DNA from: Frigoriglobus tundricola | Lineage (GTDB): Bacteria > Planctomycetota > Planctomycetia > Gemmatales > Gemmataceae | Assembly (NCBI RefSeq): GCF_013128195.2 | Contig: NZ_CP053452.2 | Location: forward strand, 3,410,001-3,474,000 | Direction: 5' to 3' | DNA: 64,000 nt | In this document: piece by piece, positions 47,166-51,342 of the stretch | Layout: every line of letters starts with the position of its first letter | Position numbering within the stretch: position 1 is the stretch's first letter | Position numbers and translations under genes: made by a program | The notes under the pieces: model-generated | Database searches by the model: none | Told to the model about the DNA's origin: nothing | What the model saw: only the letters and a program-made list of their open reading frames with translations

Positions 47166-49508
47166 ATGTCCGCACGCCTCGCCGCCCTTGTTCTTTCCGC
47201 CGTTGCGCTCCCCGCGGCCGGGTGTACGTACAACCCGGCGGCGTTCCCGTTCATCGTGCCCCCCGGTCCGATCCAGCAGACGCACGCCAAGCCCCGCGGT
47301 TTCGGCTACTTCCGCGACTACGACCCCAAAGCGACCCGCATCGAAGTGAAGCCCAACGGGCAGGCCAACGCGCCCCTCGGCTCACAGATCGTCCTCGTCG
47401 CCAGCGTTCTCGACAAGGAAGGCCGGCCGCGCCGCGACCGCCGCGTCGAGTGGATGATCGAGGGGCCGGGGAACATCATCGAGGCCGACGAGTCCGGCCT
47501 CTACGCCGGCCGCGGGTACAAGGTCGATAACAAGTACGCCGTTACCTACACGTCGTACATCCCGAAGAAGATGACCCGCGGCAACGACGACCCGAAGGAC
47601 GATGTCGCCATCGAGCCCGGTCAGACGTTCGTCGTCATCAGCTCCGCGATTCCCGGCGAAACGGTCGTCACGGCCTACGCCCCCGAGGTCTACAACTGGG
47701 ACAACGGCCGCGTCGTCACGAAAGTCGTGTGGGGCGACGGCCGGTTCTCGTTCCCCGCCCCGACCACCGTCCGCATCGGCGGCGAGACGACGCTCACCAC
47801 CACCGTGACCCCGTCCGCCACCGAACCGCAGAGCGCGTTCCGGGTCCGGTACCGCGTCATCGACGGCCCGGCCGCGGTGCTGGTGTCGAAGAGCGCCGCC
47901 GGCACGGGAACGAGCCTCGCCGGCAGCGGCGCCACCGAGACCGAAGCGGCCACGGACGAGAACGGCGCGGCGGCCGTGCGGCTCGTCGAGAGCGACCCGA
48001 AACCGGGTCGCACGCGGATCGCGGTCGAGGTACTGAAGGCGCCCGACACCGGCACCGGACCGGGCACGGTCGTCGGTCGGCGCGACGTGACGGTGGAATG
48101 GGCGAAGGCCGAACTCAAACTGAGAGTCAACGCGCCGCAGGCGGCGAGCCCCAATGGTCCCTTCCCCGTTACAGTGGCGCTGGACAACACGACCGGCGTG
48201 GAGAGCAAGGACGCGCGGGTCCGGGTCACGCTCTCGGACGGCGCGGTACTGGGCAGCAGCGAACCGCCGCCGATCAAGCAGGACGAAAAGGGCGCACTGA
48301 TTTTCGACCTCCCGCCGGTGAGCGGGAAGGGCAAACAGGCGGTGACGCTCCAGGTGCAGCCGAAGAAGCTCGGGAGCGTGACCATTATGGCCGAAGCCGT
48401 GACCGGCGACGGGATGCAGGCGAACACCAGCGCCGTCACCCGTATCGAACAGGGCAAACTGCAACTGCACCTCGAAGCGCCGTCGGTCGGGCTCGCGGGC
48501 GAACGCATCCCGGTGCGGATTGCGGTCACCAACGGCAGCACGACACCGGCCGAGAACGTGACGGTGTGGGCGGCCTTCGACGCCGGGCTCACTTCTGCGT
48601 CCGGCGCCAACCCGGTCGAAATCGCGGGCGGCACCATTGCCCCCGGGCACACACAAACCTTCGATCTCCCGCTCGCGGCCAAGGCGACCGGCCGCTACGG
48701 AGTGCGCGCCTCCGCGACCGGCGACGGCAATTTGAGCGCGAAGGCCGATCCGATCGCGGTGGACGTCCGCCGGGCCGAACTCGCGGTCGCTCTGAACGGG
48801 CCGAAAATCGCGTACATCGGCCAGGGCGCGGACTGGACGCTCACGGTCGCCAACCGCGGCGAAGCCACGCTGTCCAATGTCGCCGCTCGCGTTACGGTTC
48901 CGGCCGAACTGAACGTCACCACTGCGGACGGCGGTTCGATCAGCGCCGGGTTGGTGGAGTGGAAGCTCGGGGACCTGAGAGCGGGCGAGCAGAAATCGTT
49001 CAAATTCTCGGGTGAGACGAGCAAGTTTGCGGCGCAAGCGGTCGTTTCGGCGGCCGTCAGCGGCGACGTGGTGAACAACGGCGCGAACGTCGGTGCGCCG
49101 GTCGAGGGCAAGGCCGAAACCGCACTCGCGGTGATCGGCACTCCCGCGCTCGCGCTCGAACTCGCTACCCCACCGGGGCTCGTGGAAGTCGGCAAGCGCG
49201 TCAGCTACCAGATCCGGGTGAAGAACCAGGGGACGGTGTCGGCACAGAAGATCGATGTCACGGCCTTCGCCCCGCCCGAACTCAAGGCCGTCCGCGGGAG
49301 CGGCGGTACGGCCGACGCCCGTATCGATGGAACCGGCCGCATCACGTTCCCGACGGTCGATGAGCTTCAACCGGGGCAAACGCTCACGCTCACGGTCGAG
49401 GTGGACACGGCGCAGGCTGGCGACGCACGGTTCAAGGTGGAAGTCGCGGCCGCGCACATCAAGAACACACTGAAAGAGGAGCAATCGACACGCATCACGG
49501 GGAAGTAA
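47166..49508 (+). CDS. Surface lipoprotein with DUF11/CARDB-type repeats (780 aa)
   Basis: GGAGGG precedes the ATG, and the signal MSARLAALVLSAVALPAAGC has a lipobox. An N-terminal unknown region (PRGFGYFRDYDPKATRIEV, VVISSAIPGETVVTAYAPE) is followed by bacterial-Ig/DUF11-like units. Examples are AWTVTVTPSAT-type strands, VRIAVTNGSTTPAENVTVWA, WTLTVANRGEATLSNVAARV and VSYQIRVKNQGTVSAQKIDV. Such repeats form rod-like surface proteins. The N-terminal region is not recognised. The gene is intact. It lies opposite the PPC gene across a 300-base divergent region. Confidence 0.85.
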   Translation: MSARLAALVLSAVALPAAGCTYNPAAFPFIVPPGPIQQTHAKPRGFGYFRDYDPKATRIEVKPNGQANAPLGSQIVLVASVLDKEGRPRRDRRVEWMIEGPGNIIEADESGLYAGRGYKVDNKYAVTYTSYIPKKMTRGNDDPKDDVAIEPGQTFVVISSAIPGETVVTAYAPEVYNWDNGRVVTKVVWGDGRFSFPAPTTVRIGGETTLTTTVTPSATEPQSAFRVRYRVIDGPAAVLVSKSAAGTGTSLAGSGATETEAATDENGAAAVRLVESDPKPGRTRIAVEVLKAPDTGTGPGTVVGRRDVTVEWAKAELKLRVNAPQAASPNGPFPVTVALDNTTGVESKDARVRVTLSDGAVLGSSEPPPIKQDEKGALIFDLPPVSGKGKQAVTLQVQPKKLGSVTIMAEAVTGDGMQANTSAVTRIEQGKLQLHLEAPSVGLAGERIPVRIAVTNGSTTPAENVTVWAAFDAGLTSASGANPVEIAGGTIAPGHTQTFDLPLAAKATGRYGVRASATGDGNLSAKADPIAVDVRRAELAVALNGPKIAYIGQGADWTLTVANRGEATLSNVAARVTVPAELNVTTADGGSISAGLVEWKLGDLRAGEQKSFKFSGETSKFAAQAVVSAAVSGDVVNNGANVGAPVEGKAETALAVIGTPALALELATPPGLVEVGKRVSYQIRVKNQGTVSAQKIDVTAFAPPELKAVRGSGGTADARIDGTGRITFPTVDELQPGQTLTLTVEVDTAQAGDARFKVEVAAAHIKNTLKEEQSTRITGK

Positions 49509-49767
49509 CCGATCCCGATGAACGGCTCCGGTGCGTGGAAGTGCCTTCCACACACTCCCCTCACATGTGCGAATGCACCATTTTGCAGGATTGCACAGCG
49601 CCTGTATTGGAATCGATCGATCTACCCCATCGCCTCTGGTCCCGAAACGGGATTTCGCAGCAGGATAAAGATTTTCATATCGCGTAAGTCATTACGTATC
49701 ATCACTTTGGGATCTATCAACACAAAAGCCCGCCGGCTTTGGCACCGTGCGTGCTTTTCACTTCTAT

Positions 49768-49791
49768 CGAGCCGGTATGCGAGTCCCGGCT
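49768..49791 (+). ncRNA. Hairpin 1 with loop TATGCGAGTC
   Basis: GAGCCGG (49768-49774) pairs with CCGGCTC (49785-49791), and the loop is TATGCGAGTC. The second hairpin has the same loop on a different stem, which suggests that the loop, not the stem, is conserved. It may be part of a structured RNA or an mRNA leader. Confidence 0.45.
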
Positions 49792-49819
49792 CAAAAGACG
49801 AATGTCACACCAAACAACG

Positions 49820-49880
49820 GGCCTGGGAATAGCAGGGGGTATGCGAGTCCCCCCTGCCGAATCCCAGGCCCCACTTCTTT
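49820..49880 (+). ncRNA. Hairpin 2 with the same loop and a pyrimidine-rich tail
   Basis: The outer stem is GGCCTGGGA/TCCCAGGCC (49820-49828, 49862-49870) and the inner stem is CAGGGGG/CCCCCTG (49833-49839, 49850-49856), separated by a small internal loop. The apical loop is TATGCGAGTC. The tail CCACTTCTTTTCTT is pyrimidine-rich, so it may double as a terminator for the lipoprotein gene. Confidence 0.5.
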
Positions 49881-49999
49881 TCTTACTCTTCGCACCGAAC
49901 AGCCCAGCCGATTCAATTCAACCAATTCGTCCGTAACCTCTCCTTCCGGCACAGGCGCTGCGGTAACATGGACGCGCCCCCTCAAATTGAGGTTTCACC

Positions 50000-50590
50000 A
50001 TGTTTCGCACACTTGCCGTTCTGGGAACACTCGTCGCGTTCACCGCAACTGCCACGGCTCAACCGGGAACAACTCGTAACTGGCCCTACGTCCCGGGAGC
50101 CCCGCTTCCGGCGGCATCAGTCCCGCAGGGGAGTCAGGGGACTACCGTTTACTTCCCGGTCGCGCTACCAACGGGTTGGGGCATTGGCTGGGGTTATCAG
50201 ACGTACAACCCGTGGACCGGCTTCAGCTACGCGTTCGGCGGCATCGTTCCGACCAACCCGACGCCCCCCGAGACGCCCGCCCCGACGGCCGAGAGTCCGC
50301 GTCGTCCGGAGGCGGCAGTCGTTCTGTCGAACGAGTTCCCCGCCACCCTGGCCCTTCAGTTCCCGGCCGCGGCCGAGGTGTGGTTGGACGGCAAGAAAGT
50401 GTCCGGCGACGCGGCCACCGAGCGTGTTCTCAAGTCGCCCGTGCTGCGCCCGGATCAGACGTATGCGTTCAACGTCAAAGCCCGCTGGACGACTGGCGAC
50501 AAAACCTACGAGGCGACCCGCGTGGTGAAGCTCGGGTCGGGCGACCGCAGCCGACTGCTCATCGTCTCGGGGGATGAAGTGCGGAAATAA
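50000..50590 (+). CDS. Secreted TIGR03000-type protein (196 aa)
   Basis: GAGG precedes the ATG. The signal peptide MFRTLAVLGTLVAFTATATA is followed by an aromatic/Gly-rich region and the conserved domain (about 110-195). That domain has FPATLALQFPAAAEVWLDGK, the short linker, VLKSPVLRPDQTYAFNVKAR and a final RSRLLIVSGDEV. TIGR03000 is a small planctomycete domain of unknown function, often in secreted proteins. It is followed by a tandem paralogue, so a duplicated operon is likely. Confidence 0.85.
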   Translation: MFRTLAVLGTLVAFTATATAQPGTTRNWPYVPGAPLPAASVPQGSQGTTVYFPVALPTGWGIGWGYQTYNPWTGFSYAFGGIVPTNPTPPETPAPTAESPRRPEAAVVLSNEFPATLALQFPAAAEVWLDGKKVSGDAATERVLKSPVLRPDQTYAFNVKARWTTGDKTYEATRVVKLGSGDRSRLLIVSGDEVRK

Positions 50591-50649
50591 GCCCACCGCG
50601 CCGCGGTACAACTCATTGGGGGCCGCGACGGCCCTCGCGGAGAATCACC

Positions 50650-51342
50650 ATGTCACGCTTCTTTGTGCCCGCACTGACCGTGGTGGCATTTGCCACTTTC
50701 GCCCCGACCGCCCTGGCCCAACACGGCGGGCGCGGGGGGCAGATGGGCGGCGGCTCCTCGCAGAGAACGTTGCCGCTTTCGCCCGGCGTCTTTCCCGGCA
50801 GTTCCATCGGACCGGGAACGCAATTCCTGCCCCAACAGACGCCGCGATTCGTGCCCAACAACGGGATCGCGGGAGGCGGGACGACGCAATACCTCCGGCC
50901 GAACGCGGGGTTCGGCGCCGGGAGCTCGCGCTTCGGGCTCGTCAACGGGGTCGGTTTCGGTTTCGGCTACGGGTACGGCGGATATGGATACGGCTACGGG
51001 TACAACGGTTACGGGTACGGAAACGGTGATTACGGCTACAGTTACGGTTACGCTCCGGTCTATTACCACCGCCGCCACTGGTTTGGTGGTTGGTACCAAC
51101 CGAACATCATCCTGGGGAACGAGTTTCCGGCCACGCTAACGGTTCAGCTCCCTTCGGGCGAAGTCCCCAAGGAATATTCGCTGACGTCGCCGGTTCTGAA
51201 GCCGGAAGAGCGGTACACGTTCGCGGTCAACGTCCGCTGGACGAGCGGCGGAAAGACCTATGAGGCCAAACGGGACGTGACGCTCGGCGCCGGCGACCGC
51301 AGCCGGTTGCTCATCGTTTCCGGGACCGAGGTGAAGGAGTGA
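50650..51342 (+). CDS. Secreted Gly/Tyr-rich TIGR03000-type paralogue (230 aa)
   Basis: GGAG precedes the ATG, and a signal peptide (MSRFFVPALTVVAFATFAPT) is followed by a region of Gly-Tyr repeats (about 98-135, many YG and GYG units). The C-terminal domain matches the upstream paralogue (FPATLTVQLPSGEVPKEYSL, RYTFAVNVRWTSGGKTYEAK) but lacks the AAEVWLDGKK segment, a deletion of about 12 residues. Gly-Tyr repeats suggest an extracellular or adhesive surface role. It is about 60 bases behind its paralogue. Confidence 0.8.
   Translation: MSRFFVPALTVVAFATFAPTALAQHGGRGGQMGGGSSQRTLPLSPGVFPGSSIGPGTQFLPQQTPRFVPNNGIAGGGTTQYLRPNAGFGAGSSRFGLVNGVGFGFGYGYGGYGYGYGYNGYGYGNGDYGYSYGYAPVYYHRRHWFGGWYQPNIILGNEFPATLTVQLPSGEVPKEYSLTSPVLKPEERYTFAVNVRWTSGGKTYEAKRDVTLGAGDRSRLLIVSGTEVKE

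What the first reader, a model, noticed from the sequence alone, without database searches (positions are those of the whole stretch)
49768..49870. Two neighbouring hairpins with the same 10-base loop and different stems
TATGCGAGTC is the loop of GAGCCGG/CCGGCTC and of CAGGGGG/CCCCCTG. Different stems with the same loop is the pattern expected of a functional RNA loop. The region is upstream of the TIGR03000-type genes, so it may act on their mRNA.
Basis: seen in the sequence. Interest (0 to 1): 0.52.

Follow-up and report, generated by a model that had tools for sequence, protein, structure and literature searches.

The report
Sigma54-driven small RNA with repeated loops
The two matching hairpins are the body of what looks like an undescribed small regulatory RNA gene, found across one order of planctomycete bacteria, apparently switched on by the alternative sigma factor sigma54 and acting through a seven-base loop sequence repeated in each hairpin.

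Summary
Both hairpins exist; hairpin 2 is longer than described (18 pairs around a 3x4 internal loop). They form a predicted ~115-nt RNA gene (about 49766-49881, + strand). Covariance models hit it in 65 of 95 Gemmataceae genomes and 6 of the 7 other genomes of the order. A draw of 392 genomes of the phylum added only four weak, unconvincing hits. Covariation is strong (23 of 24 pairs change on both sides): stems change, GCGAGUC stays in the loops. All 73 accepted loci carry a GG-N10-GC sigma54-type promoter just upstream, although the models contained no promoter; two further model hits lacked it and were dropped. Tandem enhancer-like dyads lie about 165-195 bp upstream in most loci. No neighbouring gene is shared by more than 10 of 50 loci, so it is not a leader of the TIGR03000 genes. 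No Rfam family matches. Hfq was found in 0 of 95 genomes. Best reading: an enhancer-activated sigma54 small RNA acting in trans through repeated GCGAGUC loops. Whether they bind a protein (slightly preferred) or mRNA is open. Expression was not testable.

The parts
49581..49597 (+). Distal enhancer-like dyad (UAS 1), TTTTGCAGGATTGCACA, about 185 bp upstream of the predicted start
   Evidence: Motif fitted over 50 upstream regions. A matrix trained on 16 same-genus loci finds a site scoring 9 or more in 33 of 51 other loci against 37 of 4158 random windows (the starting consensus had been chosen after viewing all loci). The tandem pattern occurs once in the genome, here.
49603..49619 (+). Proximal enhancer-like dyad (UAS 2), TGTATTGGAATCGATCG, 22 bp from UAS 1
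   Evidence: Of 27 loci with two good sites, 18 have them 22 or 23 bp apart.
49739..49756 (+). Sigma54-type -24/-12 promoter, TTGGCACCGTGCGTGCTT (GG 49741-49742, GC 49753-49754)
   Evidence: GG-N10-GC in 73 of 73 accepted loci. Score of 14 or more in 72 of 73, against 123 of 9624 random windows. RpoN is encoded in this genome.
49766..49881 (+). Predicted small RNA; start taken as -12 C plus 12 nt, end as the U-rich tail
   Evidence: Covariance model match 49765-49881. Both ends are inferred, not mapped.
49769..49792 (+). Hairpin 1: stem GAGCCGG/CCGGCTC, loop TATGCGAGTC (49776-49785)
   Evidence: 6 of its 7 pairs change on both sides in the family.
49793..49818 (+). Linker, mostly single-stranded; CACACC here, CACTCC or CACCTCC in many relatives
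   Evidence: Alignments and loci; function inferred only.
49819..49871 (+). Hairpin 2: outer stem of 10 pairs, internal loop ATA/CGAA, inner stem of 8 pairs, loop TATGCGAGTC (49840-49849)
   Evidence: All 17 modelled pairs of its two helices show changes on both sides.
49872..49881 (+). Conserved 3' tail CACTTCTTTT, probably the end of transcription
   Evidence: CACTTCTTT in 32 of 67 loci, and a CA(C/T)(C/T)TC-type tail in 59 of 67. Terminator function inferred; the pattern scan did not call it and cannot, since it allows loops of 3-8 only.

Best explanation
This is a gene, single copy in nearly all genomes that have it, for a ~115-nt trans-acting small RNA of the order that holds Gemmataceae. 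A sigma54 RNA polymerase bound at TTGGCAC-N5-GTGC is activated by an unidentified enhancer-binding protein bound to tandem dyads about 165-195 bp upstream. Transcription starts 2-4 nt before hairpin 1 and ends after hairpin 2. The RNA presents the same GCGAGUC in two loops (three in a few species). Stems are interchangeable scaffolding; the repeated loop is the contact site. Shown by sequence: structure, loop invariance, promoter element, enhancer-like sites, distribution, changing neighbours. Inferred: that it is transcribed, that an enhancer-binding protein controls it in response to a signal, and what the loops contact. My choice is that the paired loops titrate a conserved RNA-binding protein when the sigma54 signal turns on (about 0.5), rather than pair with mRNAs (about 0.4).
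For: Structure: z -6.1; 98.2% of cells paired, 23 of 24 pairs with double changes, 0 of 500 shuffles as high, slid controls collapse (alignment fitted to the structure); on an unfitted MAFFT alignment of 17, 12 of 24 pairs. Loops: 113 of 117 hairpin cores are GCGAGTC; 70 of 73 loci hold at least two GCGAG(T/C). Promoter: 73 of 73 accepted loci GG-N10-GC; 72 of 73 score 14 or more against 1.3% of control windows. Of 58 distinct places fetched as hits of the promoter-blind models, 56 have it; leaving out three already seen with their promoter through, 53 of 55. Enhancer-like dyads: 33 of 51 against 37 of 4158. RpoN in this genome. Protein contact preferred because the loop word is invariant across the order and a 10-nt perfect complement is not consistently enriched.
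Against: No transcript data. No enhancer-binding protein, protein partner or target identified. RpoN was found in 87 of 95 family genomes whether or not they have the RNA, and was not found in 4 of the 66 with an RNA hit (G020, G023, G035, G115, all drafts). A weak sigma70-like promoter match also lies upstream (49674-49702, 9 of 12). The tail has CAC before the U tract. 29 of 95 family genomes have no hit, including G001 and G004 of the same genus (96 and 100% complete). Enhancer-like sites are missing or weak in part of the loci (18 of 51 below threshold). The upstream DUF11-repeat gene stays adjacent in 9 of 50 loci in two genera. Loop counts partly follow from how members were found.
Confidence: 0.62

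Rival explanations
1. Antisense small RNA with redundant seeds: the GCGAGUC loops, helped by the CU-rich linker and tail, pair with mRNAs and block translation, as LhrC of Listeria does with its repeated CU-rich sites in two loops and the linker.
For: Architecture and size like LhrC (111-114 nt, one motif in two loops and the linker, Hfq dispensable; passages of PMC4132741). Linker and tail are pyrimidine-rich and could pair with Shine-Dalgarno sequences. In one of four genomes (G014) the complement GGGACTCGCA is more frequent than its reversed control, 29 against 14.
Against: In the other three genomes it is not clearly so: 20 against 34, 19 against 22, 24 against 20, two per genome being the RNA itself. 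The full loop complement GACTCGCATA occurs 0 times in this genome. Sites shared between genomes lie inside reading frames, mostly in codons for a W-D-S-H protein motif; none of the 15 rows near possible starts is shared between genomes. Shorter or imperfect seeds were not testable.
Confidence: 0.33
2. Cis-acting leader or attenuator of the downstream TIGR03000-type genes.
For: It lies about 120 nt upstream of the gene at 50000 on the same strand; in several same-genus loci a related gene also follows.
Against: Matches to those genes occur in 8 of the other 49 loci, all same genus, yet structure and promoter persist elsewhere; the RNA ends in a strong hairpin with a U-rich tail before the gene.
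Confidence: 0.04
3. Bidirectional terminator, mobile-element end or REP-like repeat without a regulatory RNA.
For: Strong inverted repeats in an intergenic region; both strands fold well.
Against: Single copy in nearly all genomes with a hit; conserved promoter element and enhancer-like dyads at fixed distance on one side.
Confidence: 0.03

Closest known systems
LhrC sRNA family (Listeria)
   Same: 111-114 nt, stem-loop A plus a terminator loop, one motif repeated in both loops and the linker, Hfq not needed (PMC4132741, passages seen)
   Different: LhrC motif is CU-rich (UCCC) and the gene has five copies in Listeria; here GCGAGUC, usually single copy, sigma54-type promoter
CrcZ/CrcY (Pseudomonas)
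   Same: Small RNAs transcribed from RpoN-dependent promoters under CbrAB (PMC8657755 passages); CrcZ acts as a decoy (PMC4063720 abstract)
   Different: CrcZ titrates Hfq; Hfq was found in 0 of 95 Gemmataceae genomes
Qrr sRNAs (Vibrio)
   Same: Sigma54-driven small RNA class (recalled; only a reference title seen)
   Different: Qrr RNAs are Hfq-dependent antisense RNAs (recalled); no Rfam family matches here
CsrB/RsmZ sponges
   Same: One short word repeated in several hairpin loops with variable stems (recalled)
   Different: Their loops carry GGA for CsrA (recalled); none of the 19 loop types listed contains GGA

Membership tests
Sigma54-dependent promoter | GG and GC elements 10 nt apart, TTGGCAY-N5-TTGCWT | tested here: met
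   73 of 73 accepted loci; control
Sigma54-dependent promoter | RpoN encoded in the genome | tested here: met
   One Sigma54_DBD match in G000, E 7e-60; not found in 4 of 66 genomes with an RNA hit, all drafts
Sigma54-dependent promoter | Enhancer sites for an activator about 80-200 bp upstream (distance recalled) | tested here: met
   Tandem dyads at about -164 and -186 here; 33 of 51 other loci against 37 of 4158 windows. Sequence only; no binding shown
Sigma54-dependent promoter | Transcription lost without rpoN or the activator | not testable with these tools
   No expression data
Structured trans-acting sRNA | Covarying structure conserved apart from neighbouring genes | tested here: met
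   no neighbour shared by more than 10 of 50 loci
Structured trans-acting sRNA | Discrete transcript with intrinsic terminator | tested here: inconclusive
   Hairpin 2 plus CACTTCTTTT tail, but the scan cannot call a 10-nt loop; ends not mapped
CsrB/RsmZ sponge | GGA motifs in loops (recalled) | tested here: not met
   No GGA in any of 19 loop types
CrcZ-type Hfq decoy | Hfq present | tested here: not met
   0 of 95 genomes; 5 of 14 control genomes ring, E. coli included
LhrC family | UCCC motif repeated in loops | tested here: not met
   Loop core is GCGAGUC; UCCC arises only by running into the stem
Any Rfam 15 family | Match at gathering score | tested here: not met
   On window 48500-51000 only two chance matches far below gathering score; none over the element in 17 related loci

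The most novel reading that the evidence does not exclude
The GCGAGUC hairpin is the recognition site of an undescribed global RNA-binding protein in planctomycetes without a detectable Hfq, and this RNA is its sigma54-controlled sponge: a post-transcriptional control system independent of Hfq and of CsrA-type GGA recognition, with its own dedicated enhancer-binding activator.
Probability: 0.3. Interest if true: 0.82.

Novelty: new variant of a known kind. Interest (0 to 1): 0.6.

Why it matters
I found no paper on a trans-acting small RNA of Gemmata or its relatives (listings; openly licensed PMC papers only; long lists seen in part). This RNA is spread across an order, usually single copy, and carries its own regulatory signature. 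It gives a handle on post-transcriptional control in a group where Hfq was not found, and makes two questions testable: which protein or mRNA reads GCGAGUC, and which enhancer-binding protein and signal switch the gene on.

Tried and rejected
Rfam: two sub-threshold chance matches on the minus strand; in 17 related loci only a group II intron and an Acido-Lenti-1 RNA, away from the element. Mimicry of a tRNA T-arm was considered because one weak phylum hit is a tRNA by eye (L265); rejected because the bases before GCGA vary. GNRA tetraloop (GCGA): RNAfold draws it in some members, but the flanking pairs are not kept.

Targets by perfect complement: GGGACTCGCA not consistently enriched. All 84 non-self contexts, plus two self ones, were examined; shared sites are coding, mainly W-D-S-H codons. 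The tandem enhancer pattern was searched in this genome with 22-bp spacing only. The activator was not identified.

Dropped rows. R1 was built from 17 of 20 sequences; G011, G018 (three hairpins) and L148 were left out. One search gave 54 matches; 4 opposite-strand matches of hairpin 2 were dropped by a tighter cut-off. Of 35 R1 hits fetched, two were dropped: G114:C913 (no GCGAGT core; no promoter by eye) and G069 (partial, later recovered whole by R2 with promoter). Of 18 places fetched after R2, G000:C1:1141954 (E 0.08) lacks the promoter. G100 (E 0.06) has the promoter but one core; G059 and G060 also show one core. The four phylum hits were not accepted: at the hit, promoter scores are 7 (L264), 11 (L266) and 6 (L267), with no second core nearby; L265 was not scored. 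An unrelated core in L267 scored 14.

Full report
What is there. The two hairpins are real. Hairpin 1 is 49769-49792. Hairpin 2 is 49819-49871: an outer stem of 10 pairs, a 3x4 internal loop and an inner stem of 8 pairs. Both end in the loop TATGCGAGTC. The predicted transcript folds at z -6.1 against shuffles. GGTATGCGAGTCC occurs only at these two places in the 9.86-Mb genome.

Relatives. A search with 441 bases of the region found the element in other same-genus genomes at 74-89% identity. A covariance model from 17 transcripts (R1, promoter excluded) hit 50 of 95 family genomes at E 0.1 or better. A second model from 50 matches (R2) hit 66 of 95. Over the order, R2 hit 71 of 102 at E 0.05 or better: 65 of the 95 in this family and 6 of the other 7. 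In a draw of 392 genomes of the phylum, this genome and four weak hits rang (E 0.004 to 0.04); none of the four convinces. E-values of these models are rough. True members among the 120 stretches are three: a Gemmataceae MAG (RYN_437), a Fimbriiglobus MAG (Prado160) and a MAG labelled Bacteroidales.

Structure. On 49 distinct sequences 98.2% of cells pair; 23 of 24 pairs show changes on both sides (shuffled mean 13.0); sliding the partners by 1-3 columns drops pairing to 36-56%. That alignment was fitted to the structure. On the unfitted MAFFT alignment of 17 sequences, 12 of 24 pairs change on both sides; there the number of further pair types was not above shuffles (161 of 500 as high). Stems drift, loops do not: 113 of 117 hairpin cores read GCGAGTC over 67 loci (cores were looked for by GCGAG with a stem of at least 5 pairs). 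Loops are mostly 9-10 nt, with GCGAGUC against the 3' arm and usually two or three free bases on the 5' side. Four genomes show three such hairpins (G011, G018, G023, G019). In 4609 random windows none held two such hairpins.

Promoter. Directly upstream lies TTGGCACCGTGCGTGCTT, a sigma54-type -24/-12 element. All 73 accepted loci (72 genomes) have GG-N10-GC there, scores 13 to 18. In 9624 random windows of the same loci, 123 scored 14 or more and 5 scored 16 or more. For the first 17 loci the promoter was used to delimit the element, so they are not independent. Of 58 distinct places fetched as hits of the promoter-blind models, 56 have it; three of these had already been seen with promoter, leaving 53 of 55. 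Counting 12 nt from the -12 C puts the start near 49766, two to four bases before hairpin 1. RpoN matches once here and in 87 of 95 family genomes. Set, it is also found in 25 of 29 genomes without the RNA and missing in 4 of 66 with it, all drafts, so presence does not discriminate. A weak sigma70-like match lies at 49674-49702 (1 found, 0.3 expected).

Enhancer. Motif fitting gave a dyad, TGTTGCRAAATCGNACA, commonly as two sites near -173 and -196 (here about -164 and -186). A matrix from 16 same-genus loci found a site of score 9 or more in 33 of 51 other loci, against 37 of 4158 random windows; the starting consensus was chosen after viewing all loci. Of 27 loci with two good sites, 18 are 22-23 bp apart. 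G043 of the sister family carries TGTTGCAAAATGCAACA, a dyad with perfect six-base arms. The tandem pattern (22-bp spacing, up to 2 mismatches) occurs once in this genome, here. The activator is unknown.

Surroundings. Downstream are two genes with TIGR03000-like domains below the curated cut-off, upstream a DUF11-repeat protein. TIGR03000-gene matches occur in 8 other loci, all same genus. The DUF11-repeat gene lies right upstream in 9 of 50 loci including this one, six of this genus and three of another (G112, G115, G116). No neighbour is shared by more than 10 of 50 loci (fetched stretches are 3.8-17 kb and ORFs were called mechanically). The RNA is therefore not a leader of the TIGR03000 genes.

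How it works. A promoter with its own enhancer-like sites, a start at a hairpin, a repeated loop word and a hairpin/U-rich end describe a signal-responsive small RNA acting in trans. Repeated identical loops are known in protein sponges (CsrB/RsmZ, recalled) and in antisense RNAs with redundant seeds (LhrC, PMC4132741, passages seen). Hfq was found in 0 of 95 family genomes, with 5 of 14 control genomes ringing. The complement GGGACTCGCA occurs 20, 19, 24 and 29 times in four genomes against 34, 22, 20 and 14 for the reversed pattern: clearly raised only in G014. Its occurrences shared between genomes are coding. I lean to a protein contact, about 0.5 against 0.4 for mRNA pairing. A sigma54 regulon paper reports CsrA in Planctomycetia with sigma54 promoters (PMC12316311, passages), but the loops here have no GGA.

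Known or new. No Rfam 15 family matches. Weinberg 2010 (PMC2864571, passages) lists a Rhodopirellula-1 motif without an Rfam number, in Proteobacteria and Planctomycetes; I could not test it directly, but its reported range differs. The 2025 sigma54 regulon study (PMC12316311) has no occurrence of 'sRNA', 'small RNA' or 'Gemmata' in its main text. The one paper (PMC11896706, passages) reports no Gemmata small RNA in the passages shown. Literature searches.

Limits. No expression data, no target, no partner, no activator. Transcript ends are inferred.

Noticed in passing
95 Gemmataceae genomes: No Hfq (PF17209) at E 0.001 or better in any genome, while 5 of 14 control genomes ring; yet an order-wide small RNA exists.
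   Followed up: partly
L225 and L226 (G116): One genome carries two copies of the RNA gene on different contigs, each with its own promoter and enhancer-like dyads.
   Followed up: partly
L056, G005:C116:27613-27655: A truncated extra copy of only the 3' half of hairpin 2 and tail (89% identical over 45 query bases), no promoter seen by eye.
   Followed up: no
L018 / L189 (G012), downstream of the RNA: What looks like a partial duplication of the hairpin 2 3' arm and tail just downstream of the gene (seen in the listing).
   Followed up: no
L229:3523-3568: Acido-Lenti-1 RNA (RF01687) at 45.5 bits in a Gemmataceae genome; the 2010 table lists it for Acidobacteria and Lentisphaerae.
   Followed up: no
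   Followed up: no
L264 (phylum genome G450), 1503-1530: A lone perfect hairpin AAAGGGCCGGATGCGAGTCCGGCCCTTT outside the order, with no promoter and no second core nearby.
   Followed up: partly
L376 and L377 (G041, G040): Hairpin 1 holds overlapping tandem cores GCGAGTCGCGAGTC, the second running into the stem.
   Followed up: no
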